Below are positions 34,449 through 55,828 of a stretch of 64,000 nt of DNA, in pieces (positions within the stretch are counted from its first letter, which is position 1; each line of letters opens with the position of its first letter). Origin of the DNA: Byssothecium circinans (Eukaryota > Ascomycota > Dothideomycetes > Pleosporales > Massarinaceae); contig ML976985.1 in NCBI GenBank assembly GCA_010015675.1, forward strand, positions 1,139,047-1,203,046, written 5' to 3'. The translations under genes and the position numbers were made by a program. The notes below the pieces were generated by a model. That model did not search any database, was not told the origin of the DNA, and saw only the letters and a list, made by a program, of their open reading frames with translations.

Positions 34449-35514
34449 TGTCTTGAGTTGTCGTACTGATTGTGGAGTAAGAGATTCGGGAAGTGTGAGT
34501 GGGATATTGGGCTGAGAGTGATGGTGTGTGGGTGCGTGAACGTGTGAGGGTTTAAATAGTTGGGGGTCCGTCGGAGTGTCGGCGCAAAAGAGCCGTATCG
34601 TTGTTCTCCGTGGTCACGTGATGGCCAATTCACAGCCAATCCGAAGCCCCTTGAAACACAGTTTTGAGCGGGGTCAAGAATTGAGCTGCCGTACAATCAA
34701 TCAAAGACCCCTCGTAATTTCACGAGATTCTTTGATTGACATGCCTCGGCGCTTGCGATTGGTGTATCGTTAAAACAAGTATACCACGTGCTTGAGGTCT
34801 GAAGCTTTACTCAGCGACAATATATATGAGCTTTAGTTGGCCGAGGGCCCACAGGTAATTTCGTAAAGATTAGTTACAAACCTTTGATGACCAGCAATTT
34901 TCTCGTTGTACTCTCTACACATGCCGAGATTTGTTACTCCACACTATCATTCAAAAAACTATCATACTCATTGAGAAGTTGCCGATTAGGGATAAAGTTG
35001 TTCGAGATATATTATTGCGCATGGAAAAGAAGTCCACTCGTGCGAAGAAGTGATCTCGGGATAAACTAATTGTAAGTTGAATTTTTAACCAGACTGCAAT
35101 GCGCTGTCTTCTCCCTAAGTGAGTTTTTCAAAGTAGTTGACTAGTCTCATTTCACAAAACTTCGATACCACAAGAATTCTAGCAGCCCGCCCATTACCGA
35201 CCTATCATCTCTTTTAATTATCCCATATTAAACAATAATTTGAAGTCTTCAAGCAAGAACTCATTTCACGGTGGTTTTGATAGGACACATATTACGCGAA
35301 TCCCAAAGCGTAAGGCCATGTGACTGAGTTGATCAATAATCCAGAGAGATCTGAGAAAATTCCCTTAGCCAAGCATGGACGGTATCCCAGCACCAGCTTC
35401 TAGAAGGGATTCTACTAGGGTCTCTACCGCACGAAGAAGCTTGCGCGCGCTCGCAGCTAGTTTCTTTCGCGCTTTGGGGTCGCCTTTCTAGAATTCGCTG
35501 CCGTTGGCTGCAAC
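34449..35514. other. Intergenic
   Basis: Upstream region of the F-box-like gene at 33515-34448, then sequence with no ORF I trust. A short palindromic TTTGATTG/CAATCAAA pair occurs near 34700-34740. Nothing else is recognised. Confidence 0.4.
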
Positions 35515-36472: not shown

Positions 36473-37992
36473 CTATCGAAAAACCCTAACCATCGGCTCC
36501 CCCCCATTAAACGCCGCCCTCCAAAACCCGGGCATATTATAATCGTCGCCAACCCTGACCCTCGTCGTGTATCCATACCCACCATCATTTTTATTCCCAA
36601 CCACACTCCTACCACCATTCCCATCCACATCATCCTCCTGCGCAATCATCTCGATCCAGATAGCCCCCGCCTCACCACCACCACCACCTGGACCGTACCC
36701 ACCGCACTGTCGTTGTCGTCGTAGCTCCCCGTTAGGCCCAACTACGCGCGTCACAGCGTCCTGTAGCATCATATTACCGCCACCGCCGCCGTCGCCGCCG
36801 GGGGAGACGGAGAACCGGGCCATGTCTGCGCAGTGCTTTGCGGCTGAGGCGGGGAGAATGGTGGATGGGTCGCCGGTTGCGGCGATGGCGACGGCGCGGG
36901 TGCTGGTGAGGGGTTGTTCAGGAGGAGGTGGGAATGGGTGATGCGTTGATAGGGGTTGGAGGTGGTAGGAGGGTAGGAGGAGTTGGTGTCGAGGGAGGGG
37001 AAGGGGAAGGGGAAAGAGGGTGGATAGGCTGGATAGACATGATTGCAATGCAGGAGGATAAAGCCAAGGCGATGTCAAAGTACACCTGAGGAACGAAGGA
37101 ATACTGGGCGGGAGAAGAAGTGTTGGCGACGATAATTCGTTGAGGTGCTTGTGACGTTTGTACTGCATCGTGATGTCAGGGGATGATGAATGATATGATG
37201 ATGGGTTGTTGACGGGTTCTTTCCAGCATTCGGCGAGGATCCCGGTTCCGATGGATGCAGTGCTCCCGATGCTTCCTACGGCCTTATTTGATATGCCCCC
37301 GGAGGAGTTTGCGACGGCGATGGAGCCCGCCTTGTCTTGACAGACGCATGCTACTGCGCCTTCTACCAGTGGGTTGGAGAGGGCGTTGGTAGGGCCGCTG
37401 TTGTCGGCATGTGGCGAGAAAACCCCAGGTTTCTCTGTAAATGAGGATAGATTTCGCTGTTGGTGCTGCTTCTTTCTGTACTCGGTCTTGAAGTAGTCGG
37501 TGTCGCGCATGGCTAGATTCAGAGCTTGTGCCATGGACTCTGCGTTCTCGCCGCTGACATGAGTTGAAACTGATGAAGGTGGTTGCTCGCCGCTGTTTTT
37601 CAAAGCGCATTGCAGATCTCGATTGGATTCTTGACGTGCCGCAGCATGGAAACGGCGACGTAGCTTCCTGGCACGGTGGTGTTGCGTCCGAGACAAGACA
37701 GGATGCTGGTTACTGCGAGGGATGCCTCCATCTCGACAAATCCGTCCTTGTTTAACACAGACCCCCGTCCTGCGTTGAACAGCTCGTTGTCCTCGAGCTT
37801 GCGGACTGCGGATGTCGCGGCGTCCGGTGCTGAAACGCCTGTGTCGAGGAGGTGTCGGGTACTGACCAGGATGGCTTTCAGTGACGCTTCGTATTTTTTG
37901 TGAAGATTTGGATGGAGATTTTCTCGAGTGTGGCCATAGCCCCCGGTGATGATGAGGGTCGCAGTGTATGTTTTTTGCTTGGTGTCTGTCAT
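36473..37992 (-). pseudogene. Asparaginase_2 (Ntn-hydrolase) family protein, frame break and altered nucleophile
   Basis: Starts at ATG 37992, stops at TAG 36473-36475. The N-terminal part matches isoaspartyl peptidase/L-asparaginase: 'LIITGGYGHTRENLHPNLHKK', then 'ALEDN'-like 'KLEDNELFNAGRGSVLNKDG' and 'VEMEASL'. After 'KNPIEICNAL' the frame meets TGA (near 37607) and continues in the next frame. That frame has 'GAVACVCQDKAGSIAVANSS', 'GSIGSTASIGTGILAE' and near the end 'RAVAIAATGD', 'QDAVTRVVGPNGEL' and 'DYNMPGF'. In active enzymes the nucleophile is the Thr of G-T-V-G-A-V; here the residues before G-A-V are V-E, so the nucleophile is missing. A ~90-residue low-complexity Pro/Ser/Leu stretch (37160-36900) may hide an intron. 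It is probably a pseudogene or pseudoenzyme. A single sequencing indel could explain the shift but not the lost Thr. Confidence 0.65.
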
Positions 37993-38628
37993 GATGGAGA
38001 CGTTTCTTTCTTGATCACGTGCAGGATGGGAAATTGGGAGGGAACATTTCTCTCGAAATGCTCGGATTCGTGCGGTTCTTATACTATAGATGAGGGGTAG
38101 AAACAGCCAGCCAATGATACTTGCATACAGTCTATGCTATACATATGTGTCACGATATAGCAAATCGCCTTCTGCACCGAACCGAATCACATATATGTGT
38201 CAATTGTAACCTCGTCGGACCTCTCTACAGACTAGGGTCTAAACGATAGTCTCAATAAATCACTTTTCAACGTTCTTCATAGTGATTCCCAAAGGTGTTT
38301 GAAAAGTTCTGGCATGCCGCACTTTCGATTCTGATGGCTACGTTTGGCAAAACGTCAATTTAGAAAGATGACATACTCACCGTACTTAAATGCCTTGAAA
38401 GGTACTAAGCATATCTAGACTCAAAGCGAATTGATTGTATTGCTATGAAGAGAGCGCGAGATGACTAGGGGGATCGTGCCCTGACCAATCCGTCTCTTGT
38501 TAAGTAAGAAGTGACGAGGTGTCTGATCACTACATCGATCAACTAGCTCAAAAGAACCTTCACCCACCTTTCCTGCTTTTCAGGGTCGTCTACTCACTTG
38601 TCGAAACGATTCACGTACATGACATCTA
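37993..38628. other. Intergenic
   Basis: This is the promoter side of the asparaginase-like gene and the 3' side of the UstYa-like gene. No ORF, repeat or RNA recognised. Confidence 0.45.
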
Positions 38629-39474
38629 TCAATGGTGATGACCTTCACCCCGGACTTCGTCGTTCTCATTACCGGAAGCATAGCGATACCATTCCGGCGA
38701 AGCTCTAGACATATCGTATAGAGGCTTGCTGTCACGGCATTGATGTGTTATCATGCCATCAATAGCACCGCGTCCAAGAGAGTTGCGCTTTGGAGGCTCG
38801 ATAGTGTCATCAGCCAAACACATGACAGACTGTCAGGGTGTCAGCCTTCTTTCATGAAATGATTTTGCATCAAAGGGTTTGGGAATGTACCTGTCGAAGA
38901 TAATCAAGACAGTGCAGCATGTGAAGTTCTGGATCATGTCCGTCATCTTCCTTTTCGCCGAACCCGTGTCTAGTGTACTCGGCATACGGGCGCCTTGAAG
39001 AGCCGCCGCGTGCCTGCAGAGCTTGACGAATCATCTGGAGACAGTGAAGCTAAGTTTTTGTTAGTAGTGGAGGAGACACGTCGGATCGGGTAAGTTTACC
39101 TGGTGGAACATGCCGATTCCGTGACGATGGGCGTTGCCCTCTTCATCAAGCTTGATGAGAAAACCGCCGTTTGGTGTGAGCAGCTCTTGCCAGTAGTGAT
39201 CGTTCTCATGAGAAAGATCCTGATAGATGTCGTTTTCCTTGAACTTCATTGTGGTGGAGAAGTGAAAAGGGTTGAAGCTATACTCGGAAGCTTGACTTTG
39301 GTTTTTCTCCTCAGCAACGTTTGAAGAAGCTAAGCATTGCCTTATCTGGGAGAATTTCTCGCTGCGTAGGCCATAGAATGTAATAGACACGACAAGAAGT
39401 GTGATGGTGACGAGTGAGAAGAAGATGCTGAGAACGCGGAGACCGCAAATAGAGCAAGAACTGGACGACTTCAT
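38629..39474 (-). CDS. UstYa-like (DUF3328) oxidase, copy 1
   Basis: Model: exon 1 39474-39100, intron 39099-39050, exon 2 39049-38891, intron 38890-38830, exon 3 38829-38629; 244 residues, all joins in frame with GT-AG. A single membrane helix spans ~13-35 ('VLSIFFSLVTITLLVVSITF'), giving a type II topology. The two hallmark motifs of the UstYa family are intact: H-x-x-H-C at residues 124-128 ('HQLHC', across intron 1) and again at 168-172 ('HMLHC') followed by 'LDYLRQ'. Characterised members (UstYa/b, PhomYs, VicYb) are copper-dependent enzymes that make the cyclising or oxidative modifications of fungal RiPPs. It is transcribed away from copy 2 (40145) from a 670-bp shared upstream region and lies 3.3 kb from the repeat-protein gene. 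Family call is strong; substrate is inference. Confidence 0.88.
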
Positions 39475-40144
39475 GATGATTTATGAGAGCGAATATAATT
39501 TCAGAACAGTGTTTCAATGTGAGAAGTCAAGAATTGACATTCAAATGAAAAGTGTCAGATCGAGGGCATTCCTGGCATTTCTGGCAGAGGGAGTCGTCAT
39601 ATTCTTGGTCATATCCCAATTGCACCTGACAGGCGTGCATTCGCATCTCGGACATCCCATATGTTGCTACGCCGCTTTTGATACGCCGCTTTTGATACGC
39701 CGCTTTTGATACGCCGCTTTTGATACGCCGCTTTTGATACCCCGCTTTTGATGTATCCACAATTAATTAACTTGCGTTATCACTGCTGCTACATCTGACC
39801 ATTCATTAGGTGTGGGTCTCTCGGTTGATATGCTGGGTATCAAGCTTGCCGCAGCAGCAGTCAGCAATCGCCTGACTGGGATACTACAAGTATTTTTCAG
39901 AAACACGGCAGCAGATCTAATGTGCATAGATTCATTGCATCATGTTGCAGCCGGTGTGATAGGGTGAAGTCGCAATCGCTAGCAACTGTACAGTTGCATC
40001 AAGAGCGGGGTAAAGAGTTTGATCAGGGAAAGGAACGGATATCAGCTCGCTCCCACGGCTATGTCCATTGTGCTCTTGTTGTCTCTTGTGGATACAGCTA
40101 CTCACGCTTGAATACCAAACACTCTGTTGCGAACTACTTCAACT
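39475..40144. promoter_or_regulatory. Divergent intergenic region between two UstYa-like genes
   Basis: It separates the starts of two DUF3328 genes read in opposite directions, so it should hold both promoters. It contains the 14-bp tandem repeat 39669-39752. I do not see a clear TATA box or a CGG-N-CCG zinc-cluster site that I would defend. Confidence 0.5.
39669..39752. repeat. 14-bp tandem repeat, six copies
   Basis: The unit ACGCCGCTTTTGAT is repeated six times (84 bp), with one base change in the last copy. It lies between the divergent UstYa-like promoters, ~195 bp upstream of copy 1 and ~390 bp upstream of copy 2. Confidence 0.9.
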
Positions 40145-41286
40145 ATGTTTGACTTCCTCAAGCGATCTTCCTCACTGAGTGATGTAACAAGCTGCCACTT
40201 TTCTGAACCTGCGATGTCTGAGTCTTCTACTTTGCTCAACGAGAACAGTCTCAAGATTGAACAGAATGATGGGAGTTGGGCAGATGTTCCTCTTGAGAAA
40301 CAAGGAAACAAGACGTCTTGGTGGGCTCGTAGCTCGCGGGTCTGGATCATCGTTCACTGCTGCTTGATGTCTGTTTACACGGGCATCTTCATCGTGGCAG
40401 TAACCTACTTCGCCATGAACAAAGTGCCTTCAGGCACTTTGAAAATCAGTAGGTTCCGAAAAATCTTACACTATCATTTTACTTATTCCATCAGGTCCCG
40501 CGAGAGAAGCTATAGAATATCAACAGCAATACTTCGATATCAAACCTGAGATTGACAGTACGTGGATTGGTGAGCCGAGCGAGGAACTAGATGCAAATTG
40601 GCATAATCTCCTTCAGAGTGAGTGACCCTCTTCAGAAGGATGTGGTATCATGCTCAATTTTCCAGATACCAATATTCGAATTACGAAAGACGAGTTCAGC
40701 TGGCTTGATCGCCCGGGAATCGCTCTTCCAGATGGTGGCTACTTGGCTGCACTCAATGTTTACCATGAACTTCATTGTGTCGTATGTGGATCTTCGTTTA
40801 CTTACAGACGGTTAATCTGACGAGAAACAGAAGCGCCTTCATCAGTACATGTATCCCGACTACTACTTTCCTCACTTGACTAAACACGAAAAGCATCTCA
40901 ATTTTCTCCACAGCCATATGTGTATTGTCTTATCATGGAAACATACTTTACTCACATAAACACAGAACACTGTCTGGATATCATTCGCCAATCGATCATG
41001 TGTCACGCAGACACAAGTCTGGTGACAATGAGATGGGGTCATTCTGGTGCTATCCCTCTGGCGAACTGGACGTATCCTCACCAGTGTGTCAATTGGGAGA
41101 AACTCCATTTTTGGGCAGGTACTCGAGCTGTCAACGTCTTTGCGAGGAACTATCTGGTTCACCCGCAGTTCGGTATGTTGTTTCACTAGTTTGATGATTG
41201 TTCAGCTCGTTGGAACTAAAGGGAATACAGGTCCTTCGTATCCACAAGGGTTCAACCCGACTATCGGAGTCGTTACTGAAGATTAG
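40145..41286 (+). CDS. UstYa-like (DUF3328) oxidase, copy 2, with a problem at one splice join
   Basis: Model: exons 40145-40448, 40495-40617, 40666-40781, 40831-~40919, 40966-41172 and 41231-41286. The N-terminal ~65 residues are polar, then one membrane helix ('VWIIVHCCLMSVYTGIFIVA'). 'LDRPGIALPDGGYLAALNVY' leads into the first H-x-x-H-C ('HELHC', residues 176-180) and 'KRLHQYMYPDYY'. Exon 5 begins with the second His-Cys motif ('HCLDIIRQSIMCHADTSLV'), and the end reads 'GPSYPQGFNPTIGVVTED'. The join of exons 4 and 5 is odd: GT at 40920 shifts the frame, GT at 40922 makes TAA across the junction, and only a GC-AG intron from 40913 keeps it open, with a changed spacing of the second motif. 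The gene may be damaged or use the GC donor. Function as for copy 1. Confidence 0.75.
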
Positions 41287-41966
41287 AGGGGGGATCAAGT
41301 CCGGGTTTTTTACTAGTTACGCTCATTGCACTGTTTGAGAGTGTTATCTCCAGAACGTTCTTCAAAGCACGGATATCACAGCTATAGCAATTTTTTTTTG
41401 TAACATCCAAATCCCTGAATGACTTTGTTGCCTGAAGTTTGATATCATCTATGACCTGTGCTTCCCCGGAAAGATACATTTGACTGTAGATCTTTCCCAT
41501 CAAGATCCAACTTCAATCTTGCTTTTATCACATGAGAAATATCTCATTGTATACAGAATCGAGACAAATTTAGTAATGGTGTCGTAGGTAAGGCTGCGAA
41601 GCTTGATGCTCTAGGAAGGTCATACAAATCCTAGACTAGAGCTTGGAAGATGAACACATGATTTTCCGCCAATCTCACCAGTTTTCGTAACTAGGATTAA
41701 AGTTTCGAAGAAGACACAATGCCGGATAGCTTGGCATGGGAGTATCCTGCAGTCAGAAAATAGTTGAGTTGGCGAGAATCTTGAGCAGTAGACTGCTGCT
41801 ACCTGATCAGCAGGTCCGTAACAAGTACGATCACCGCCTAACATCGAGTTAAGATCTGCAGTAAGATTGCAATTAACCGGCATACCGCCTGTTCTCTGTG
41901 TCCTGACCCACGATGGGGCATACATCCAACGCAATCGAGATCGTTCTTTTACCGGATGGTAGCCAT

Positions 41967-42126
41967 CAGACTTGGGAACAATCAATTCAATCGGCTCTGT
42001 AGAAACCACCGCTAACCCAATTAAGTAGGAGTTAAACCTATACAGGGAATTCTCTAGCCCGAATAGGTAATCAATCAATTCAATTTCACTGCGCCAGCCC
42101 CACTTAATTGATTGTTCCCAAGTCTG
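41967..42126. repeat. 21-bp perfect inverted repeat with 118-bp loop
   Basis: CAGACTTGGGAACAATCAATT plus its exact reverse complement at 42106-42126, each arm next to a GGTAGCCATC copy. This could be a small foldback element or a strong hairpin. I see no further copies in the window. Confidence 0.8.
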
Positions 42127-42631
42127 GTAGCCATCCACACCTCGGGATGATATCAAGCTAACCGCAAACACCTTCTGCAACTTAATTGAGTGTTATGGAT
42201 TTGAATTACCGTCGTCAGCATTCTGCATTATCAAAAGTGGGGAACTTGGTGGCAGTATCTTGCTTTCATCATTAGCACCCTCTTGTGATACTGCCGATGA
42301 TGTCCCACATCAAGAGGTGAACCAATTTCTCATATCTAATAGTTACGTTCAATTTGATTTGTCGGATACTTCTCGTGATTAAGTTTACGATCAAACTCAA
42401 TTGACACAATCATTGGGCCGAGGTCGCATATCGATCGGTTATCAATGTGTTGGTTAGCCACTTCGAGGGTGTAAGTGGTAGCATTGCTTCATGCAGTTAT
42501 GCAATGCATGGAAAGTATCGTGCGGAGATGCATGCCGCGGTAAGCTCAGGGTTGAAGCGGATGAAGTGGAACATTCGATCAACAATAGACTTCTGGATTT
42601 AAGTGTAGGAGCGGCGTATTCGCGTACATGA

Positions 42632-42640
42632 TATATAAAT
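42632..42640 (+). promoter_or_regulatory. TATA-like box of the repeat-precursor gene
   Basis: TATATAAAT lies 85 bp upstream of the ATG at 42725, followed by a CT/CA-rich leader, an ordinary core promoter layout for a strongly expressed fungal gene. Confidence 0.55.
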
Positions 42641-42724
42641 CCCCACCATCATGGGCAATTCCATCCTCTATCCATCATCCTCACAGCTCACTCTCAAGTC
42701 CAGTGCATCACCATCTATAACATC

Positions 42725-43312
42725 ATGTATTCGAAAGTTCTTTTGATTACCCTCCCCCTTCTTGCTACATTCACCTCCGCTGCCCCAGCACCTCGTCGCT
42801 ACAAGCACGTGCCGGATGCCGACACATCTTACGAACGTTTTCAGGACGATGTCAATCGCCATCCTCACCGCGTTCCTGACGCTGACACCTCGTATGAGCG
42901 TTTCCAGGACGACGTAGCCCGTCCTTACAAACACTACGTCCCGGACGCTGATACATCCTATGAACGCTTTCAAGACGACGTCAACCGCCGTCCTCATGTT
43001 CCGGATGCGGACACCTCATATGAACGATTCCAAGATGATGTGAACCGCCGTCCTCATTATGTCCCAGATGCAGATACTTCATATGAGCGATTTCAAGACG
43101 ATGTGAACCGCCGTCCACACTACGTTCCGGATGCGGATACTTCATATGAGCGATTCCAGGATGATGTCAACCGCCACCGAAAGGTTCCGGATGCCGATAC
43201 CTCCTACGAGCGATTCCAAGATGATGTGAACCGCCGCCCACACCACGTTCCGGACGCTGACACATCGTACGAGCGCTTCCAGGACGACGTCCGCCGCCCT
43301 TATCATGGTTAA
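42725..43312 (+). CDS. Secreted repeat protein, candidate RiPP (dikaritin-like) precursor
   Basis: 195 residues, no intron. Residues 1-20 form a clear signal peptide ('MYSKVLLITLPLLATFTSAA'), followed by 'PAPRR'. The rest is eight copies of the 15-residue unit VPDADTSYERFQDDV, identical in every copy, separated by basic linkers of 4-7 residues such as 'NRRPHY', 'NRHPHR', 'ARPYKHY', 'NRHRK' and 'NRRPHH'. Several linkers carry dibasic RR or RK sites suited to Kex2. Signal peptide plus identical repeats separated by basic cleavage sites is the plan of UstA/PhomA/VicA-type precursors and of Kex2-processed repeat proteins generally. The single Tyr per unit (in 'TSYERF') is the natural candidate for UstYa-type cross-linking. 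Codons differ between units while the residues do not, so selection holds the peptide. It has UstYa-like genes 1.4 and 3.3 kb upstream. The product is unknown; a structural wall protein is the alternative. Confidence 0.78.
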   Translation: MYSKVLLITLPLLATFTSAAPAPRRYKHVPDADTSYERFQDDVNRHPHRVPDADTSYERFQDDVARPYKHYVPDADTSYERFQDDVNRRPHVPDADTSYERFQDDVNRRPHYVPDADTSYERFQDDVNRRPHYVPDADTSYERFQDDVNRHRKVPDADTSYERFQDDVNRRPHHVPDADTSYERFQDDVRRPYHG

Positions 43313-44293
43313 AGTCCGATTTCCCCGCATTTTCCCAAGTGATAAGTCGAGGATCAACGCTGATTAGATCAGACAGAATGTGCATGCACAAGAGAGCTTC
43401 ATCGCACTAGCTGAAAAGGCTCTGGGAGACTGTGCTGACGAGCATATGGTTTGGCAGTTCGAATAGGACCGGAACGGTTAGTACAAGGATCTTCATGGTA
43501 TGATAGCTGCGTAGGAAATCTGCAAGTTGCTGGCATGTGGTGTGACATTCGTTGATTCCGAAATCTGGGTCATTTGGGTTACTTCTTGGTGCTTAGTCGA
43601 GGTAGAGAATTGTGACGAGGATACATCAGCGCCTGGTGGCAGTTGCGGTGTTAATGGAGAGCCTTTGATTGACAATACCCTTTCCCGTTTGCTCTTGTGT
43701 GAGATATGCCTGCCTATCATATTTTGATCAACCAGCAAGAAATTGAACGATGGGTTGGTTTTTGATATGTCTATAAACAACTTTATCTAATTGGTATGTT
43801 AAATGATTCCCATTGGTCCCAATCAGCTATATCCGGGGCCGGGGTAGTACCGCGCACTGCGTAGGCAATATATAGGGGCTTCCGCACGAGTTCCGCGCTA
43901 GCCCACATCAGGCCGCTGCTTAGCCAGCTCTCTCCTGATCAATCCATAACACATCCAACGACCTCTTGGCGGTCGTACGACCGAGACAGGGTTTACACCG
44001 ACATGACTATATGGAATCTGACATGCATATGCTCCTTATAGACGTCATTCATATGAGGGATTCATTTATCCTAGTCCGCACGGCGCTTACCGTCTCGTAT
44101 CACTCGGCAACAGTTGGCGTCTTCTTTTTACCTGACAGAGAAAATGGCCCATGAGCAAAACGGCTAGCTCTCGTTTACGTGCCACTTTCTCTACTAATGC
44201 TGTAAGAGATCTGACTAAGATTCGGGCACGCTACACTCCAAAGGCCGACGTAGAGTATCCGTCGTATGGATCTCGAAATTACCATCTTCAGCA
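43313..44293. other. Intergenic between precursor and EamA transporter genes
   Basis: It holds the terminator side of the precursor gene and the duplicated promoter-like element at 43826-43954. No other gene is supported. Confidence 0.45.
43826..43954 (+). promoter_or_regulatory. Duplicated promoter-like element, copy 1
   Basis: It starts GCTATATCCGGGGCCGGGG and shares with 48507-48666 the ordered blocks CGCACTGCGTA, GCGCTAGCCCACATCAGGC, GCTGCTTAGCCAGCTCTCTC and a CAATxxCCATA-CACA end. It lies 340 bp upstream of the EamA transporter start, in the same orientation relative to that gene as copy 2 is to the ATP-grasp gene. Confidence 0.7.
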
Positions 44294-45892
44294 ATGTTGC
44301 AGTTCAAACTCCAAAGCCAATATGGACTTGGCCTGATGCTTCTCCTGACGACCGTTGTGCTAAGGGTTGGTAGCAATTTCTTGATGAGTGTAAGCGGTGC
44401 CCTACCTTCCGGAGAGAAGACCACTTCGCTTGACACTGATTATTCCCCAGACGGTCTTCTCACAGCCAGAATTCTCCAAGCCTTTTCTGGTTACAATGAT
44501 CAACTCGGCTTTCTTTGGCTTCGTCTTTGGTGGCGAGAGTCTCATGCGCGTCACGTTGCGGAGGTGTTACCCGGCATTGCTGCGTCATGAGCAACGCCCG
44601 TCCCACAGCGAACAGAGACGCATGTCGCAAGACGACGAAGAAACAAACAAGGATGTCCAGAATGCAGACGTGCAAAGTGGTAACTCCGTTGCCCCTGATT
44701 CCCGCAACCGCACCATTCCCGACGACGAGCGATCACCTTTACTACCAACCGCTCAAACAAGATGCGCCCGCGAAGATCATGACACGAAGAAGAAAGTTAT
44801 TCCGCTGTCCCAAACTACGAAGATTGGCGCACAGGTGTCCTCGTTATGGGTGAGTATTTGCATCTCCAGTAGAAACAAGGAAAGAGTGCTGGAACGATTA
44901 CTGACCATTCCCAATAGTTCCTGGTACGTTCATCTCCGCCATTGATCGCGCATGCTCCTAAACCACCAGTCCAACTATCTTCTCGCTCTCTCTCTAGCAA
45001 ATACGACAGTGAGTAGTGTAACCATCATTACTGCCACTGGAAGTGCGTCGATTCCCCATCCGAGAAATGAATAAACAACCGATATCTTACTTCAAATAAG
45101 AACAGGTGCCTGGGTTCTCGTCCTCAGCGCCGCATCGAAATCACCCTCCGAGAAAATCACCCCACTGAAAGTCCTTTCCGTAGCGCTAGCAATAATCGGC
45201 GTATGTATCGTCTCTACGCACCCCATCGTACCCACACAACAAGCAATCCCGCGTCCCGAAAACAACAATAACAACGACCAAGAACCCGAAACCTCTCGAT
45301 CAGGCCCAAACGCTAGGGACCCTCTTCTGGGAGACATTTCGGCGGTCCTCGCGTCCGTCATGCATGCCGTCTACACTGTCTTCCTGTCGGGTAAGCTGCG
45401 CGGTAAACGGGTCACGTTCCCCGCGGCCTTGTTCGCATGCATCGGCGCCTCGAATCTGGCTGTGTTTGGGCCGGCTTGGGCTGTTTTGGGGTTGCTTGGG
45501 TGGGAGGAGGTAAGGGTGCCAAGGGAGATGGATGATAATGTGGGTGTGCTTGTTTGCGTTATGATTTCAGTAATTTATCCATCTTTCGACAATTCTCTTT
45601 TCTTTCTTTTTATTTTGTTTTCTTTGTGCTATGCGTAATGTAGAGCTCTTGGCTAATGTCCAATCTGTCTGTTCAGATCAACGCAGCTGTGTCGGCGTTC
45701 ATCGATATCTTATGGGTGTCTGGCATGGTCAAGACGTCTCCTCTTGTTGCAACAATTGGTGTTAAACTGACCATCCCGCTCGCGCTGGTGGTTCAAGTCG
45801 TTTGGTTGAAAATGCATCCGGACTCTTGGTACTGGGCGGGCACAGCTTGTGTGTGTGCTGCCTTCGGGTTGATGGTGTGGACGAAGTCGTAA
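44294..45892 (+). CDS. EamA/SLC35F-type (THI74/YML018C-like) membrane transporter
   Basis: Exons I can defend: 44294-44389, 44451-44849, 44998-45042, 45106-45569 and 45677-45892. Markers: 'GLMLLLTTVVLRVGSNFLMS' joined to 'FSKPFLVTMINSAFFGFVFG' (the helix-1/helix-2 signature of this family), a long acidic cytosolic loop ('DDERSPLLPT'), then 'NTTVSSVTIITATG', 'AWVLVLSAAS', 'KVLSVALAIIGVCIVS', 'NAAVSAFIDILWVSGMVKTS', 'PLVATIGVKLTIPLALVV' and a last helix ending 'AFGLMVWTKS'. About ten helices are expected. Between 44849 and 44998 a 6-nt micro-exon (44918-44923) or a direct join both miss the frame by one base, so that join is unresolved or the gene is damaged. Relatives are vacuolar or Golgi drug/metabolite-type carriers. 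A role in moving precursor or product of the cluster is inference. Confidence 0.7.
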
Positions 45893-46067
45893 GATCCTCT
45901 CTAGATTCCTAGAAACCGCGATATTACATAGAGATGAGAAGACCTGAGAGAGGAAATGCACTACCATTCAATACAGAAAACAAAATACAAGCCCTTGTCT
46001 CATCTTTTTTTCCTGTTCATACTCACATGATGTCTACACCCGTATCAAGACGACTCCTGTAAGCCCT

Positions 46068-47993
46068 CTATTTCTGGTCGACCAGATTTTCATGACGATC
46101 TTCTTTCTTCGCATCCAAACCATCCATCTCCACATCCCTCTCATCATACTTCCTAAACACCCCCCAAAAACCCACCGTAACAACCGCCATAGCCCCAGCC
46201 AGCCCTGAATACAACCCCACCATATTCGGGTCCTTGGCCGCAGGCGACATGGCCAACCCCAAAGCCTGCCCAATACCCGTAGTCAGCAAGGAAATGGCCT
46301 GCACAACGACCTTCATGCTCCTCGGTGCCTTCGAATACGCGTATTCGCTTGCGGTGACGCTCGCAAAGATCTCCGCCGGTGCGAGAATGACGTAAATGGG
46401 CGTTTGCAGCCAAACGCTGGCGTCGTTAGGGGTCCCTTCTGGGCCTGACGCAGGGCATGCGAGTGGAAATTTATAGCATGGTCCAACGTTATAGATGATT
46501 GACTGTATACCGGCAGCGATAGCCATGCCCCCTGCTGTACATACGAATCCCACCGCGATGCGTGCGATGGGACGAAATGGGATGCGATGGTCCGAAAGGA
46601 AGGGGTATAATATTGTTTGAATGATTGGCGCGAGGATGATGCACGCGGCCGCGTTGAGTGAATAAATGGCATCGTTGGGAACTCCTCCGCGTTCCATTTG
46701 TGCGGCTTGCGAGACGAGGTTGTTCTGCATCTGATTGAAGCAGAGGTAGAAGAAGATGAAGCCAATGCTGCGAGCGTACAAGTCAGAAGGGGTCATTTAG
46801 TAAAGAGTTCATAGGGGCGTTGTCTTACAGCACTTTGCATGCCACCAACCCACGCTTGATCTCGGCGACAAAATGACTATCCCAAGTCACCACTTTTTTA
46901 TGGTGTTCGAGTTGGTACTGCGGCTCTGCAGCATCGAGTTGGAAACTGTTTTTGGCGGCACAGGCCAGGACTTTGACCGCGGCTCTTAGTACGTTACTTT
47001 GAGGCGGTGGTTTGACTAGACCACAAAACTATTAGCCACTTTCGTAGGGGTGGAAAGAGTTTGGTACCAAATTTAGAGTGGCCCAGAAGCATTAGCGTCA
47101 CTGCTACACCAAGAAAGGCTGTTGGAAGCAGATAGGCTGCCCAAAATCCTCGCTCTTTCTCCAGATATGTTGTCGCAATAGAAGAAATGGATACAACGTT
47201 GACGATCCTGTGCTGTCGTCAGCAAATGCAGATGGCTGATTGATGCGAGAACACCGACCAGTAGTAGGCATTGTAGATGTACTGAATCGTCATGGATCTA
47301 TTCACAACTACCCTCTCCCCCTTGCGTGTCACTTTGATTTTTGGGTTTAGATTCGTGTACTGATCAGCTGAAGTGCGCATTCTCGCGGGTCAGCAGCGAT
47401 TCAAGGGGTGAGTGATGAGGATACAAACACTCACCAATGAAGGGTGATACTGTGGATTTGATTCCTCCGACACCAAAAGCGATTAGAAAGGCAGCTACAG
47501 CAAACCCACCAACGCCTGCCCCCGCTTGCAACGCAACTGGGAGCGATGTGAGGGTCAAAATCAAGCAGCCGCAGATGTATAATCCAAGGCCTAACCACAG
47601 GGTGCGGTAACATCCGAGCCATGTGTCTGAAATGACTGCAAAGGCGACGGGGCTCATATAACTCAGGAAGAAAAATGCGTAGTAAATGATGGTAGCCCTG
47701 GACTGACCAAGACCCAGAGCCCCAGGTACACCCTTCGAGTCCAATGGATTCTGCATGTAGTTTTCTGCAACATTTCAGTTGAAACTCGAGTGTATGCTTG
47801 CTGGGTATGCAGCAATCGGCACGGAAATGCAGGACGTACGCCAAGGTGCAGTCAAACCGTAGAATGTGAAGCGCTCAGCGGCACCGACAAATGCAGCTAT
47901 CCAGACTGTCACAGGAAGATCGTCGACTACATTCCTAAGAGTTTCCACCTCTCGATCGGTAGCCCATTGCTGATCTTGCGATTTGACTTCCAT
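46068..47993 (-). CDS. POT/PTR2 family peptide transporter
   Basis: Six exons: 47993-47840, 47764-47435, 47367-47259, 47207-47068, 47015-46829 and 46767-46068; every GT-AG join keeps frame, giving 539 residues, normal for the family. Markers: 'AERFTFYGLTAPWQNYMQNP', 'YYAFFFLSYMSPVAFAVISD' with 'GCYRT', 'LIAFGVGGIKSTVSPFIG-DQY' (the classic PTR signature), and in the C-terminal half 'CFNQMQNNLVSQAAQM', 'QTPIYVILAPAEIFASVTA' and 'EYAYSKAPRSMK'. POT proteins use the proton gradient to carry di- and tripeptides across membranes. In the E-x-x-E-R motif used for proton coupling the first Glu is Gly (G37), with E40-R41 kept, so coupling may be altered. A peptide carrier fits a peptide-natural-product cluster. 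Confidence 0.9.
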
Positions 47994-49064
47994 CGTGCTG
48001 ATATGTTGGTGACTTCCAAGTCAAGCAGTTGGTGATGCCTTCACGAAGTGAATGATCAGAAACGATGTTGCTTGTTGGTGTTTTGTATTACTACCACCTC
48101 CAGAGCACAGGGCAGATATTGGAACGCGTAGATGCTTGAGACACAAGCACCGACAAGCCGACATCATACCTCTCTGGTTGGCTTGGGGGTCAGCAATTAG
48201 GTGATTGACCACAGACCGTTTACCTCGATGGACAGAGCTTGTAGCTGCAGCCAATGACACGGCCGGCAGTAGTGCTTACCGTACTGTGCCTTACATGCAA
48301 CTCAATTTATCCACCACACCCGGCTTACCTTTAACCTGTGCAGGTAGGTAACACCCATGTATATAGGTGGGTCCTCGGGAAGCTAACATTACAAATAAGA
48401 CGATCTACATTTTTATATCCGCCACATCCAATTCGCGATATCGTTTGTGGTACACCCTCCCGAGCTGTTACTTCCCGACATGCCGCCCCCCTGCACTCTC
48501 CAGCCTGCTATATCCGGGGCTGGAGTACAGCGCACTGCGTACGAAAAAGCTGTGGTTCTAGCTACGCAGGCAATGAGCTCCAGAGAGGCGCTTCGGCGCT
48601 AGCCCACATCAGGCAGCTGCTTAGTCAGCTCTCTCTCTCTTTCCTCCAGTCAATATCCATAGCACAGCTCACGTGCCATTACTTCTAGTTCGACTTACCC
48701 GTATGTGAGCCGGACACCTTACATGTATCCAACAGAGAACGCGGAATCAAGAATAAAATATCAAATCCAGGGGAAACAAAAAACCCGCTGGTAGTCAACC
48801 GACCACTTCCAGATGTACCCCAACTTCGAGAAGAGTGGCAACGTAAGGTTCGCCGCATCAACTTCAAGTAAGTGAAAGGAACATCACATCATACATGGGT
48901 GGCCGTCTTTTCGAAGGTAGACTTAGGCGCCATGTTTCACTGACCAATGATAGCGCCAATCTGCTTCCGCTGGAACTACGAGGCCGAATCAGACGAGAGT
49001 CGCCAGCGCTCCAGTAGGATACTCTATCTATTCCCACGCAACTCTCCTCCAGATGAGTAGATGA
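47994..49064. other. Region between POT transporter and ATP-grasp gene, with possible 5' exons
   Basis: It holds the POT promoter, the duplicated element 48507-48666 and an open stretch 48690-48868 ('NPLVVNRPLPDVPQLREEWQ') ending at a good donor (gtaagt). That stretch may be an upstream exon of the ATP-grasp gene; I could not join it in frame with confidence. Confidence 0.4.
48507..48666 (+). promoter_or_regulatory. Duplicated promoter-like element, copy 2
   Basis: It starts GCTATATCCGGGGCTGG and carries the same ordered blocks as 43826-43954, with a ~25-bp insertion between the CGCACTGCGTA and GCGCTAGCCCACATCAGGC blocks. It lies upstream of the ATP-grasp gene (first possible exon ~48690) and ~510 bp from the POT start on the other strand. 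Confidence 0.7.
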
Positions 49065-50993
49065 ACCCGAATCGCCACATACAATGGTACTTTCGCTCAC
49101 TTAGGGTCTAGCTGTGATTTGCTGGAGCTAGACGAAAGGTCGCCCCAGCACCTCTTCATTCAATCTACCATTGCACACTTTCCTCGTCAACCATTCGCCT
49201 TCGTCATCCCCGACCGTAAAGGATACGTCATTCGTGCAGATTACGTGAGGTTACGTCTTAGAGGACTCCCTCACGTCCAACAAGCAGAGGGCTTCACCTC
49301 GTCGCAATATCGGGAAGTGACGGGCGATGTCTCCAGCGACCCCACCGTCAGCTCTTTACTCAGCATAGCCATCGCAGGTCTGATCCTACGCGTCTCATCT
49401 GAGTCGAGAGAGGAGGCATCTCTGATCAATACCATCTCGGAGGAGTTTAGTTGCCGACTATGCACACCATGGATTACGCCCACGCCTCAACCCCGCAAAC
49501 GACTAGCATTAATCGATGGACGCATTTACTTCCCCACGAGTAAGCATTTCTACTACGCAGCTCGGGCGCTGGGAATCAGCCTGGTAATGCTGGACCGACC
49601 CAATCACTACCTTCAGAATGCAACCGGTCCAGAATCAAAGCTTCGCGAGGCCTTCATCGCCATCGACTTGACCCGCGACAGCACCTTGCCCCAAAGAATC
49701 GTAGATGCGATAAAGGGCTACCCAGACCCCATCGATGCGGTCGTCACAATCTGCGACCCTCTGCTCCCGTTCGTGGCCCAAGCCAATCTCCTCCTCGGAC
49801 TCCCCACCAACCCCCCGCAAGCCTTCGAAATCGCAATCGACAAGCACAAAACGCGGCTACTCGACGAAGAAACAGACCAGGCGTTCCGAATCAGCACTTC
49901 AGCCGACCTTCACGCGCGTTTGGCATCCACAGCGTACCCAAAACTCGAATATCCCTTAATCATCAAGCCCTGCAGCGGCAACGGCAGCGAGGGCGTCGTA
50001 AAAGTGACATGCGAGCCTGACCTCGTCTCCGAAGTCTCACAAGCCTTCTCGCGCGCGCCGCAGGGCCTCCAGCAGAATAGCGACCTCGTCATCGAGTCGT
50101 ACGTGGACGGGCCCGAAGTCGACGCCAACCTGGTCCTGTGCGATGGCGACGTCATCTTCTGCGAGATCGCAGACGATTTCCCCAGCACCTCGGACACCAT
50201 CGCAACGACGGTCCAGAGCGGTGATGCATTGCCAACGCTCAACTTCCTCGAGACGCAGAACGTCCTGCCGTCGGCTCTGCCGCCCGCCGAGCAGGCCCTG
50301 CTGAAATCCCAGATCCACGCGCTCTTAGATAAAGCGGGATTCCGCTTCGGACTGTACCACTGCGAGGCCCGCGTCAAGCATTCCCGCACATCCTACTCCC
50401 TCTCCCCGTCATCGAGAACCCTAGACCTCCAACCCACCGACAACGGCGTCGCCCGCCATCCCGACCACGAGCCGAGGACGTTTCTAGTCGAAATCAACGC
50501 CCGGACGCCCGGGTACATCGCCGCGGCCGCTACGCACATCACGTACGGCGTGGACCTGTTCGCCACGGTCCTGCTTTCCGCCGCCAGAGACACCCAGCGC
50601 TTACTTGCCATATCGCAACCTTTCGACTTCTCGCGCGCCGCCGCTAGCTTGGGATCGCCAAAGCAGCGGCTGAGAGCGACGCAGTTCCACGCTTCCATCC
50701 TTTTCATCCACCCGTCCTTCGACACGGGGAGCATCTTGCTGTCGGATCTGAATGAGGTGAGGGTCGAGTTGGCGAGGCGCCGGCCCGAGTTGTTTGGTGA
50801 GGATGTAATTCTGGAGTGGCAGCCGCATTTTGAGAAGGGGGATAGGGTTCCGGGGCCGGCGTCGGGGGAGCTGTATTGGGTGTTAGACTGTGTGGTCGTG
50901 TGTGGAGGGGAGAGGGCGGAGTTGTTAAGAATGTGCGAGGAGGTGAGGGGGGAGTTGGCGAGGGTTGTTAAGATGGCTCCGGATGGAGTATAA
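49065..50993 (+). CDS. ATP-grasp carboxylate-amine ligase, 5' end unresolved
   Basis: The frame is open from 49065 to TAA 50991-50993, with no ATG before the domain; the ORF from TTG 49119 has 624 codons. An upstream exon is therefore expected. Counting from 49119: a preceding N-terminal alpha/beta domain (~130-250), the ATP-grasp lysine loop 'YPLIIKPCSGNGSEGV' (Lys ~283), 'VIESYVDGPEVDANLVLCDG' with 'FCEIADDFP' (~335-365), and the metal-binding 'FLVEINARTPGY' (Glu ~458, Asn ~460). ATP-grasp ligases activate a carboxylate as acyl phosphate and join it to an amine, often making peptide bonds outside the ribosome. In this setting it could add an amino acid to a processed peptide. It is GC-rich, not RIP-damaged, and shares a promoter-like element with the EamA gene. 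Confidence 0.85.
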   Translation, partial: TRIATYNGTFAHLGSSCDLLELDERSPQHLFIQSTIAHFPRQPFAFVIPDRKGYVIRADYVRLRLRGLPHVQQAEGFTSSQYREVTGDVSSDPTVSSLLSIAIAGLILRVSSESREEASLINTISEEFSCRLCTPWITPTPQPRKRLALIDGRIYFPTSKHFYYAARALGISLVMLDRPNHYLQNATGPESKLREAFIAIDLTRDSTLPQRIVDAIKGYPDPIDAVVTICDPLLPFVAQANLLLGLPTNPPQAFEIAIDKHKTRLLDEETDQAFRISTSADLHARLASTAYPKLEYPLIIKPCSGNGSEGVVKVTCEPDLVSEVSQAFSRAPQGLQQNSDLVIESYVDGPEVDANLVLCDGDVIFCEIADDFPSTSDTIATTVQSGDALPTLNFLETQNVLPSALPPAEQALLKSQIHALLDKAGFRFGLYHCEARVKHSRTSYSLSPSSRTLDLQPTDNGVARHPDHEPRTFLVEINARTPGYIAAAATHITYGVDLFATVLLSAARDTQRLLAISQPFDFSRAAASLGSPKQRLRATQFHASILFIHPSFDTGSILLSDLNEVRVELARRRPELFGEDVILEWQPHFEKGDRVPGPASGELYWVLDCVVVCGGERAELLRMCEEVRGELARVVKMAPDGV

Positions 50994-52496: not shown

Positions 52497-54182
52497 CTAT
52501 ACTTCCGCTGTAGTGATGTCCTCTTGGACGGAGTCCATCTCTTGAACATCTTCCACCTCTGCGTCTTGAACGGGTTCCGCCTCCGCCTCTTTAATGGAGT
52601 CCGTCTCCTGAGCGTGGTCCACCGCTTCTGTCTGCTCTCGTCCTTCAATCAGCTCTCCCTCTTCGATCGGCTCTCTTGCTTTGGCTTCATTCATGAGTCG
52701 TTCGCGACGCTGCCGCCTAGTTTCGTAATTCTTGACAGTGTCATCAACATACTGCGTCAAATCCTCCTCAAACTGCACATGCTTGATCCACCTCCCCTTT
52801 GCAGTACGCTTTGCGAAAGCAATGCACTTATCCTGGTAGCCAAGGTAATGGCTCAACTCGAAAATTATCTCCACATCCTTCTTCTGCGCATACTTCTCCA
52901 CCTGATGGCACAGATACTTGACAGATTCCAACTCCGTTGCGCCAACGAATTCTGCCATGTTTGCCTTGGCTACCATGACGCGTACTGTCTCCAAGCCGGT
53001 CAACAACTTCATGGACTTCTTCCGCTTAATTCCCATAGTCTTCAAGTGTCCGTAATCCGCGTCCAACATCCAATCTTGCATATGCACAGTCCTGATGGCT
53101 TGGCACTGCTCGGCGTCCAGGGCGTAAATGAGGTTGCGCAAGCCATGTGTCGGCTTTTCGGCTTCGCCAAAAGAGTTCATGCTGAAGGGCAAGAGACGGG
53201 TTTCATGGTTGACTTGGTGGCTGACAAGAGTTAGGGCGAGATAGTGGGCGGAGAACGGCGCCTTCCAACTATAGCACTTGTTGATGCGGAAACCAAGGTT
53301 GCGTGGCATGGAAGGATGTGCGGTCTTGAATCTCGAGTTGACCTTGTAAGACGTGGCAGACGTAGTGGGTCGTCGGTTCTTTGAAATGCGCACAGCCTGC
53401 ACTGGCTTTCCGGTCCTAGCAGCTTTGATCGCAGCTTCGTTCTCCAGGTAACGATCCATGAACGCTTTCGAAGGGTGCCCGGCATAAACGAGGTTCCCAC
53501 CGAGGACGTACTTATAAATCTGGTTTCTAATCTCTCCGGGGAGACGGAGAAAAGGCGACTGGATCATGTTCAATGCGGTAATTTGGCTGTGGGGATGGGG
53601 CGGCTTGGGTTTCCGGACACGAAGAGTCATCGGGTGTTTGGAAGCCATGCGAGGGAGCTCAACAGGAGGTTCATTACGGAATCGGTGAGCAAGTCCGCGA
53701 GGGGAATCCTGAGAGAAAAGTTTGATAACCTTTGCTGGAGGCAATGTCGTTTCGCGGGCTGCAGGCGGTAGTGGCCGCTTCAACCTAATCACTAAGGCAT
53801 TTTGAGGGTCGGTTGTAGGCGTAGGTGAGGGTAAATCTGCCTTTCGCTCCTGAGACACCATAGGCTGCATGATTATAGGCCGCTCGGAGGTGTCGTGCGA
53901 AATCTTGACTCGCTTTCGGGGAGGCAACGCCGACTCCAGCGCATGAGGTGACAGTGAGCGCTTGAAACCCACGTGCAGGAACTTGGGAGCAATCTTTATG
54001 GAGGCATCCCATGCCGACAGCGACTTGCAACCGCGCGGAGTCATTGGAGATCCGAAGCCTTCCTGCGGGGTGTCTGGCAGAGGCTTTTCGGCGAGCGAGG
54101 GCGAGGGCGACAGTGAATGACGAGCGCGATGTGCCATGGATTCGCTGAGATCGGCTGGTGAGGCTACACCGTGAGAAGTCAT
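52497..54182 (-). CDS. F-box-like ('LLRLP-E-R') fungal protein, long form
   Basis: One intact exon of 561 codons from ATG 54182 to TAG 52497-52499. Residues 1-200 are disordered, rich in Pro, Ser and basic residues, with repeated 'KRxLxPxAxExxLPPxK' patches. The domain starts at ~205: 'SPFLRLPGEIRNQIYKYVLG', then 'YLALTLVSHQVNHETRLLPF' and a C-terminal half with 'LDAEQCQAIRTVHMQDWML'. The tail (~480-561) is strongly acidic with Glu/Asp repeats and coiled-coil-like heptads. This is the best-preserved member of the five in this window. Family function is unknown; F-box-like proteins may be adaptors of ubiquitin ligases, but no Skp1 contact is shown here. Confidence 0.85.
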   Translation of the reverse strand: MTSHGVASPADLSESMAHRARHSLSPSPSLAEKPLPDTPQEGFGSPMTPRGCKSLSAWDASIKIAPKFLHVGFKRSLSPHALESALPPRKRVKISHDTSERPIIMQPMVSQERKADLPSPTPTTDPQNALVIRLKRPLPPAARETTLPPAKVIKLFSQDSPRGLAHRFRNEPPVELPRMASKHPMTLRVRKPKPPHPHSQITALNMIQSPFLRLPGEIRNQIYKYVLGGNLVYAGHPSKAFMDRYLENEAAIKAARTGKPVQAVRISKNRRPTTSATSYKVNSRFKTAHPSMPRNLGFRINKCYSWKAPFSAHYLALTLVSHQVNHETRLLPFSMNSFGEAEKPTHGLRNLIYALDAEQCQAIRTVHMQDWMLDADYGHLKTMGIKRKKSMKLLTGLETVRVMVAKANMAEFVGATELESVKYLCHQVEKYAQKKDVEIIFELSHYLGYQDKCIAFAKRTAKGRWIKHVQFEEDLTQYVDDTVKNYETRRQRRERLMNEAKAREPIEEGELIEGREQTEAVDHAQETDSIKEAEAEPVQDAEVEDVQEMDSVQEDITTAEV

Positions 54183-55828
54183 TGCGAGGTATTGTAGCGG
54201 AGATGTGAGGTCGGCTTTTCAGTTGTGTGGATATTACGGACCCGCGGACAGGCCGTGTTGGTAGTAGTGTGCGAGAGTAGAAAAAGTGTTGTTGATAGTG
54301 GTGTAGTAGGGAAACAGATTCGCGATTCCAAGAAGAGTGTACTCTAAGAAGGGTGCACGTTGAAGCTGTCAAGTTGAGAATGTGTTGATGGTCAGTGGTC
54401 GGGTTGCTCGGTCGGGGCCTGGGGCTGTCATTGGGAAAAAATAACACTAGACTGAATCAGGCAATGCACGCTCAAGAGGTGCAAACGCAGGTGAATGCTT
54501 CATGGATCTCGACGCAGCCAGTCTACACAATATCAAGAACCAAATCTACGCTATTGTTTCTGAAATCGAATTGATATCTTCAATACAATAAAGGCCACAA
54601 AATTCCCATAAAGCGACTTTAGTGCAAACTCTTGTTTGTATTTTTTTTGGTGACACCACACTGAAAGGACCAAAAATAACCACGACATATACATTTGGTC
54701 CGTGAAGACCATCCTCAGACAAGGCAAATGTCCATAAGTTCAGGCCTAAGACGGATTGCTTGGTGGTCATACTTCTAAGGGGCGAACACGGATATGAGAC
54801 ATCAGACGGTTGTGTAGTACAGTGCAGAGCAGAAATCTGAGAATAATTTCTAGTTCTATCCTTCTAGTCGACCTGGTATGCGCCGAATCGGCCCGTGTTT
54901 AGCTACGGTCCAGAACAGGTAACCAACCCCTCATTCTTGTATCAGACACTCTACGATCTGAGAATCGAAAGAGGGTATAAAACCGATATACGTTCCTTCC
55001 CCGGCGAATTTTCCAATAGGAATGCCCGGAAACGCGCGATTTCTCCTTACCGCATATTCTAATACGACAATGGTGTGGTCTGACTTTATTTGATGGAACC
55101 GAAATGCTTAAAAACTTGCGATGAATGCTTACCGGCTTGGCGGTTGTACCGGCCCACTGGGTCGCACGCAGCAGCTACATAAACACGAAGGCAACTACTT
55201 CCGGGACCGTTTACTCCGGCGGGGAAGATGAAGTCCAGATGCTTCGTTGTGATCGGAGCGTTATTTAAGCCGGATTCCGTTCCATTCGACACATGGTTGG
55301 ATATCAAATTCACCTGCCAAAAGCGTCGAAATACAGTTGCACAACAACGATTCAACGAGTTGGAGTTGAGGAATGTCTCGTATCTGGAGCATTCCTGCGC
55401 TGTATTCACTGTGTTTGTTGCCTTGTGCCTTCTTTTCGATTTCCAACGATTCGTTCGACTGCAATGCCGTTGTATGCATAGTAGTATTGAGTTCAATATA
55501 TCGTCGTCAGCGCTGTTCTTGATTCCCTTGTGCGCATGAAAGCTGAGTCGTATTTTCGTAGCTGAATGAATTCGGGGATGTATAAGTATAAGGTGAATCG
55601 TTCGAGGAGCGGATATCTTTCATCGCTCGACAGATTGTTTGGTAACTACCCCAGAAGACGGACCTCGTCAAACCTCTCCCAAAATCATGTAAGCGAACAG
55701 CCGGGGAGGATGTTAAGCCTGTTGCTCCTTGGCCTTGCAATTGAGATCCGATTAGCTAACCTGAGGGTCCCAGGGCTTCGCTACTCATATTCACATCCGT
55801 GATCATTATTTCTTTTGGCTCCAACCGG
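54183..55828. other. Intergenic, no gene supported
   Basis: Overlapping short frames exist on both strands near 54546-54770 and 55086-55540. The minus-strand one at 55086-55496 has a few Cys and a 'GVNGPGSSCLRVYVAAACD' stretch but no ATG or signal peptide in frame. The region may hold the 5' exon of the lectin gene that follows. Confidence 0.35.

What the first reader, a model, noticed from the sequence alone, without database searches (positions are those of the whole stretch)
38629..50993. Candidate fungal RiPP (dikaritin-like) gene cluster with ATP-grasp ligase and peptide transporter
Within 12.4 kb lie two UstYa/DUF3328 oxidase genes on a shared divergent promoter region, a secreted precursor-like protein of eight identical repeats with basic linkers, an EamA-type carrier, a POT/PTR2 peptide carrier and an ATP-grasp ligase. 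UstYa enzymes with repeat precursors define ustiloxin-, phomopsin- and victorin-type pathways. An ATP-grasp ligase and a POT carrier are not standard parts of those, so the pathway could be new. The repeat unit VPDADTSYERFQDDV matches no core peptide I know.
Basis: partly seen in the sequence, partly recalled or inferred. Interest (0 to 1): 0.88.

Follow-up and report, generated by a model that had tools for sequence, protein, structure and literature searches.

The report
UstYa-linked fungal repeat-peptide gene locus
A fungal genome region carries a gene for a secreted-looking protein made of eight identical 15-residue pieces beside genes for peptide-crosslinking enzymes, so it probably makes a small modified peptide of a known general kind, with some unusual neighbours.

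Summary
The window is Byssothecium circinans. At 38629-43312 lie two divergent UstYa (PF11807) genes and a one-exon gene for a 195-residue protein with a signal-like leader and eight identical copies of VPDADTSYERFQDDV. All 15 codons vary between copies, at third positions only: strong selection on the peptide. Five other UstYa loci of this genome also encode repeat proteins within 2 kb, so this is one of several dikaritin-like RiPP loci, a known kind. Two departures: the precursor has no KR site (RR, mostly before Pro, or RK in 6 of 8 linkers), and the second UstYa gene has no GT-AG or GC-AG splice model keeping both HxxHC motifs. The PTR2 carrier may belong: 2 of 7 other PTR2 loci lie within 10 kb of UstYa. 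The ATP-grasp is a single-copy, amino-acid-ligase-like enzyme of a widespread fungal family. It and the EamA-like gene share a promoter segment matched nowhere else in the genome, but only position ties them to the RiPP genes. Product, processing and co-expression are untested.

The parts
38629..39474 (-). UstYa1, DUF3328/UstYa oxidase, 3 exons (39474-39100, 39049-38891, 38829-38629), 244 aa, two HxxHC motifs
   Evidence: annotated shorter (169 aa) as CC80DRAFT_490341
39475..40144 (.). Divergent promoter region with a 14-bp tandem repeat, 6.4 copies at 39664-39752
40145..41287 (+). UstYb, second UstYa gene; both halves match PF11807, first HxxHC (HELHC) intact; the junction between the exon ending near 40921 and the one starting near 40966 has no GT-AG or GC-AG join that keeps the second motif
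41967..42128 (.). Short element with terminal inverted repeats (MITE-like) between UstYb and the precursor gene
   Evidence: 15 further copies at 97-100% identity
42725..43312 (+). Repeat precursor: signal-like leader, eight identical VPDADTSYERFQDDV units with Arg/His/Pro-rich linkers, 195 aa
43819..43950 (+). Promoter segment A upstream of the EamA-like gene, matched elsewhere in the genome only by 48500-48640
44294..45892 (+). EamA-like membrane carrier, 6 exons, 397 aa; membership of the pathway not shown
46068..47993 (-). POT/PTR2 peptide carrier (exon borders not modelled); possible pathway member
48500..48640 (+). Promoter segment B upstream of the ATP-grasp gene, partner of segment A
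48813..50993 (+). ATP-grasp ligase, 679 aa (CC80DRAFT_490346), L-amino-acid-ligase-like; membership of the pathway not shown
36476..38136 (-). Asparaginase_2 / beta-aspartyl-peptidase-like gene, lying within this ORF range, next to UstYa1; membership not shown

Best explanation
The core (UstYa1, UstYb, repeat gene, 38629-43312) is a dikaritin-like RiPP locus. The repeat protein is taken into the secretory pathway by its leader (inferred from sequence; no signal-peptide program was run). UstYa-type enzymes oxidatively crosslink each 15-residue unit, most likely through Tyr8 of VPDADTSYERFQDDV (inferred from the family). Proteolysis at the basic linkers then releases up to eight copies of one modified peptide: Kex2-type at RR and RK where present, other proteases elsewhere (inferred; weak, because KR is absent and most RR precede Pro). 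The PTR2 carrier probably moves the peptide or its fragments (weakly supported). The ATP-grasp may add an amino acid or make a dipeptide for this or a separate pathway (speculative). If the interruption in UstYb is real, UstYa1 alone must do the crosslinking, or the locus is decaying.
For: PF11807 for both genes; both HxxHC in UstYa1; eight units with 15 of 15 third positions and 0 of 30 other positions varying; five other UstYa loci of the genome with repeat proteins containing KR, two of them with a signal-like leader in the same exon and one with it in a separate upstream exon; in the DNA held, all 6 such genes lie within 2 kb of a UstYa match although 139 of 320 kb is farther than 2.5 kb; Tyr in the unit, as in 65.6% of DUF3328-linked against 38.2% of other repeat sequences (PMC7329392); PTR2 loci near UstYa 2 of 7 outside the window, beside tyrosinase, the known partner, 3 of 18.
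Against: No KR in the precursor, and 2 of 7 internal linkers have no dibasic pair. UstYb is interrupted on every GT-AG and GC-AG model tested. No tyrosinase match in the window. No relative of the precursor in the protein database (0 of 2580 candidates). DUF3328 proteins also occur in non-RiPP clusters (PMC12048977). No expression or product data. The near/far test is modest: P 0.033 with the window, 0.058 without it, and repeat genes elsewhere in the genome were not sought.
Confidence: 0.7

Rival explanations
1. The repeat protein is an uncut secreted or wall-associated protein (or an unmodified peptide source), and the UstYa genes are neighbours by chance or serve another substrate.
For: No KR site, two internal linkers without a dibasic pair, RR mostly before Pro; about 78% of 7878 repeat precursors have no DUF3328 gene among the 15 nearest genes (PMC7329392).
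Against: In the DNA held, none of the six repeat genes counted lies farther than 2 kb from UstYa, though 43% of that DNA does lie beyond 2.5 kb (the sampling was centred on UstYa loci, so this says nothing of the rest of the genome); same orientation as UstYb; the unit is kept fully identical while linkers vary.
Confidence: 0.2
2. Two neighbouring but separate functions: a small RiPP locus (38.6-43.3 kb) and a peptide-uptake/ligase module (EamA-like, PTR2, ATP-grasp; 44.3-51 kb) with its own shared promoter segment. This rival is compatible with the best explanation of the core.
For: The promoter pair is matched only upstream of the EamA-like and ATP-grasp genes in the whole genome; 29 shared 9-mers against 6.6 expected, z 6.9, while the UstYa/UstYb and precursor promoters show z from -0.8 to 0.9 with these two; ATP-grasp relatives are widespread in fungi, and only one copy was found in this genome, so no other UstYa locus has one.
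Against: PTR2 lies near UstYa in two further places and those two copies are its closest paralogues by identity; gene spacing is continuous.
Confidence: 0.45
3. A decaying RiPP locus: UstYb is a recent pseudogene and the pathway no longer makes its product.
For: 0 of 5405 GT-AG models and no GT-AG or GC-AG pair among 236 pairs tested keep both motifs; a young mobile element sits between UstYb and the precursor.
Against: UstYa1 and the precursor are intact, with no nonsynonymous difference among units; UstYb is otherwise open on both sides of the break; one assembly only, so a sequencing error is possible; 2 AT-AC pairs keep both motifs, which may be chance.
Confidence: 0.25

Closest known systems
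Dikaritins (ustiloxin, phomopsin, asperipin-2a, victorin)
   Same: UstYa/DUF3328 enzymes with two HxxHC motifs beside a leader-plus-repeats precursor with Tyr in the unit
   Different: No tyrosinase match in the window; no KR sites; a 15-residue unit fully identical in all copies; ATP-grasp and PTR2 neighbours. ATP-grasp is not mentioned in the main texts of PMC7329392 and PMC12048977, nor PTR2 in the former
KEPs, Kex2-processed repeat proteins (PMC7329392)
   Same: Meets the stated criterion of at least 3 repeats of at least 8 residues between KR, KK, RK or RR sites: units 4-8 are flanked by such pairs on both sides
   Different: No KR; RR followed by Pro in five linkers; the first three units fall in one fragment
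FsqD (fumisoquin) and AnkG, fungal ATP-grasp enzymes
   Same: Three listed homologues of the window protein are named fumipyrrole biosynthesis protein C; FsqD is the ATP-grasp of fumisoquin; that fumipyrrole protein C and FsqD are the same kind of protein is recalled
   Different: No NRPS-like gene among the window ORFs given to Pfam; 32-33% identity to the so-named homologues. FsqD and AnkG themselves were not compared
Bacterial L-amino acid ligases BL00235, BacD, RizA
   Same: Among the best structural matches of the ATP-grasp model (3vot, 3vmm, 4wd3), and 3vot best by sequence
   Different: 14-19% identity, and an N-terminal region of about 180 residues before the ATPgrasp_N domain

Membership tests
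Dikaritin RiPP locus | DUF3328/UstYa protein with two HxxHC motifs | tested here: met
   UstYa1; UstYb only in part
Dikaritin RiPP locus | Precursor with N-terminal signal peptide and tandem repeats of at least 10 residues | tested here: met
   Eight 15-residue units; leader judged by eye, no SignalP run
Dikaritin RiPP locus | Kexin sites between repeats | tested here: inconclusive
   RR or RK in 5 of 7 internal linkers, no KR, RR mostly before Pro
Dikaritin RiPP locus | Tyrosinase (older five-gene definition; the newer one makes DUF3328 the class-defining enzyme, PMC12048977) | tested here: not met
   No PF00264 match in the window
Dikaritin RiPP locus | Methyltransferase (older five-gene definition) | tested here: inconclusive
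   None among the window ORFs given to Pfam; not every ORF was given
Dikaritin RiPP locus | Transporter or peptidase | tested here: met
   PTR2 and an asparaginase/beta-aspartyl-peptidase relative are near; role not shown
Dikaritin RiPP locus | Cyclised peptide product derived from the unit | not testable with these tools
   Needs LC-MS
KEP | At least 3 repeats of at least 8 residues between KR, KK, RK or RR | tested here: met
L-amino acid ligase (ATP-grasp) | ATP-grasp fold with ATPgrasp_N and ATP-grasp_4 domains | tested here: met
L-amino acid ligase (ATP-grasp) | Dipeptide-forming activity | not testable with these tools
   Needs enzyme assay

The most novel reading that the evidence does not exclude
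A UstYa RiPP pathway in which the repeat units are not freed at KR by Kex2 but at Arg/His-Pro linkers by another protease, and the excised crosslinked peptide is then extended by a stand-alone ATP-grasp amino acid ligase and moved by a PTR2 carrier: a ribosomal peptide finished by a ligase.
Probability: 0.1. Interest if true: 0.72.

Novelty: new member of a known kind. Interest (0 to 1): 0.42.

Why it matters
It adds one precisely defined, strongly selected precursor to the fungal RiPP class and shows that Byssothecium circinans carries at least six UstYa-linked repeat genes. The searches made here found no report of them: no paper holds both Byssothecium and RiPP, none holds the unit string, and the main text of the largest survey seen does not name the genus (PMC7329392); supplementary tables were not open to me. 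The precursor was not found in the protein database even for its own species, so annotation-based surveys may miss such genes. If the ligase is part of the pathway, it would be a finishing step that searches did not turn up for UstYa pathways.

Tried and rejected
Precursor against the protein database: 0 of 2580 candidates at E <= 0.001. PDB by sequence for UstYa1: none at E <= 1; fold search of the UstYa1 model (the 169-residue annotated form, pLDDT 72.0): 0 matches at E <= 0.001. DUF761 and melan-A hits of the repeat protein rejected as chance matches over 11 and 27 residues. Text search for the unit string: no paper. UstYa with DUF3328 and ATP-grasp: no paper; DUF3328 with ATP-grasp: one lanthipeptide review, listing only. 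Kex2/proline search: nothing useful (listing only); that Kex2 disfavours Pro after the site is recalled.

Rows dropped from the repeat-gene count: WD40 (window 1-759, the one dropped row that lies far from UstYa), TPR-like (L011), antisense echoes of L014 and L034, L026 (same place as L014), and frames of the 14-bp promoter minisatellite in the window and L005. The leaders of the C9 and C60 repeat genes were not located.

Random control regions were asked for and not granted, so the near/far test rests on DNA held, which was centred on UstYa loci. The stretches were scanned only with the KR/RR filter. The PTR2 and tyrosinase tests are post hoc, with a 10-kb limit chosen by me, and match counts are lower bounds; the C35 PTR2 match is partial.

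The 9-mer promoter test also gave z 3.8 for asparaginase-upstream against precursor-upstream, and 2.0 to 2.9 for three pairs with control stretches; I draw nothing from these.

Mended on re-check: an earlier wording set the six repeat genes against the 1.6% of the genome near UstYa; that was biased by my sampling and is gone, and I lowered the best explanation from 0.72 to 0.70 and raised the uncut-protein rival from 0.18 to 0.20 for it.
Full report
Source. The ATP-grasp reading frame matches CC80DRAFT_490346 at 100% over 98%, and UstYa1 matches CC80DRAFT_490341 at 100% over 69%; both are from Byssothecium circinans on a contig of 1,417,624 bases. That is the length of the contig that holds the window. 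The fungus belongs to the Pleosporales, Dothideomycetes.

Core genes. UstYa1 (39474..38629) and UstYb (40145..41287) diverge from a 670-bp region with a 14-bp minisatellite. Both match PF11807. UstYa1 has both HxxHC motifs. Of the 22 sequences aligned, only P0161 departs, lacking one His of each motif. Relatives from one ENA contig (P0122, P0124; 63% and 62% over about half of UstYa1) and from another set (P0126; 74% over 42%) are close; named ones in Xylariaceae are at 50%.

UstYb is open on both sides of a junction near 40921/40966. None of 5405 GT-AG models keeps both motifs. Of 236 donor/acceptor pairs tested at that junction, only two keep both, and both are AT-AC. With that many trials I do not credit them. 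A real lesion, a sequencing error and unusual splicing all remain possible.

The precursor. The gene at 42725-43312 has one exon and a single match in the genome. The leader MYSKVLLITLPLLATFTSA looks like a signal peptide by eye. The eight units are identical as protein but differ pairwise at 5 to 13 of 45 bases (mean 9.21). All 15 third positions vary and none of the 30 others does. A crude neutral estimate for at least 24 substitutions all being silent is 1e-16 (it ignores transition bias and the tree). The linkers vary: NRHPHR, ARPYKHY, NRRPH, NRRPHY, NRRPHY, NRHRK, NRRPHH, then the tail RRPYHG. So the 15-residue unit is what is selected. The five other repeat genes show the same lean to third positions, though four of them also have first- or second-position changes.

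Processing. The published KEP criterion accepts KR, KK, RK or RR (PMC7329392, section 13), and the protein meets it. There is no KR, two internal linkers lack a dibasic pair, and five of the RR pairs precede Pro. If only Kex2 acted, units 1-3 would stay together and units 4-8 would be separate. That is an inference.

Parallel loci in the same genome. PF11807 gives 56 exon-level matches in 36 to 37 merged regions. Among 320 kb held from these regions and the window, a repeat scan finds five further repeat genes: C9 at 665 kb, four AAF-GINY-GLK units; C37 at 258 kb, nine D-GWKIS units; C17, four AYPESYKR units; C60, five exact PHHKGKKAGKK units; and C21, three AVYQAWYRATN units. All five contain KR. 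C37 and C21 have a signal-like leader in the same exon, C17 has one in an upstream exon, and those of C9 and C60 were not located. All six, with the window, lie 660 to 1959 bases from a UstYa match. 181 of 320 kb is within 2.5 kb of UstYa, so the chance of all six being near is 0.033, or 0.058 without the window. 20 or so regions were held only with flanks of 1.5 to 3.5 kb, and the rest of the genome was not scanned, so six is a lower bound. Venturia inaequalis was reported with nine such clusters (PMC9632046, passages).

PTR2. Eight PF00854 loci were found. Two of the seven outside the window lie within 10 kb of UstYa (2.6 and 9.1 kb), with 1.6% of the genome within that reach: binomial P 0.005. 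Tyrosinase, the known partner, serves as control: 3 of 18, P 0.0027. Asparaginase_2: 0 of 3 outside the window. The closest paralogues of the window PTR2 by identity are the C13 copy (47%) and the C35 copy (50%, over 54 residues), which are those same two.

ATP-grasp. It is the only ATPgrasp_N match in the genome. 135 homologues were found, 120 listed; the listed ones with a named organism are fungal, three named fumipyrrole biosynthesis protein C. The AlphaFold model (pLDDT 85.5, pTM 0.88) matches an L-amino acid ligase best, 3vot, with 3vmm and 4wd3 also in the top seven; target-normalised TM 0.69 to 0.79. In fungi, FsqD and AnkG were proposed as ATP-grasp enzymes, and Cp1B of the E-64 pathway was shown to be one (PMC12568646, passages; PMC5999785, passages).

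Is it one cluster? A segment of about 120 bases upstream of the EamA-like gene is matched elsewhere in the 48.4-Mb genome only upstream of the ATP-grasp gene (blocks at 82, 87 and 93%). This links those two genes by duplication or shared control. The UstYa/UstYb and precursor promoters show no excess of shared words with either (z -0.8 to 0.9). Among the listed relatives of UstYa1 (44) and of the ATP-grasp (120 of 135), I saw no contig length in common except the window's own (by eye). This weakly favours two neighbouring modules, with PTR2 uncertain.

Verdict. The RiPP core is fairly well supported as a new member of a known kind. The larger twelve-kilobase pathway, and with it the claim of a new pathway type, is not shown.

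Noticed in passing
41967-42128: A young MITE-like element: 15 further copies at 97-100% identity over about 160 bases in the genome; this copy sits between UstYb and the precursor gene.
   Followed up: partly
G000 C37 257711-258388, C9 665357-665722, C17 1028838-1029044, C60 177954-178460, C21 593188-593775: Five further UstYa-linked repeat genes in the same genome, with units D-GWKIS, AAF-GINY-GLK, AYPESY, PHHKGKKAGKK and AVYQAWYRATN.
   Followed up: partly
43819-43950 and 48500-48640: A promoter segment matched only at these two places in the genome, upstream of the EamA-like and ATP-grasp genes.
   Followed up: partly
39664-39752: A 14-bp minisatellite (6.4 copies, 97% matches) in the divergent UstYa promoter.
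   Followed up: no
L041 (C35:475940-485939): Another UstYa locus with a PTR2 gene and an alpha/beta-hydrolase gene; no repeat gene was seen there.
   Followed up: partly
C26:436370, C28:398421 and C34:434068: Tyrosinase matches 0.5, 2.3 and 8.1 kb from UstYa matches, recalling ustiloxin-type loci.
   Followed up: no
33580-34551, 52500-54218, 58330-59403, 59504-60664: Four ORFs with DUF7730 matches flank the region (two above the Pfam cut-off), a local group of uncharacterised proteins.
   Followed up: no
1-759: High-identity WD40 repeats (126-bp units, 90% matches) at the window edge, recalling fungal NLR-type repeat proteins (the NLR link is recalled).
   Followed up: no
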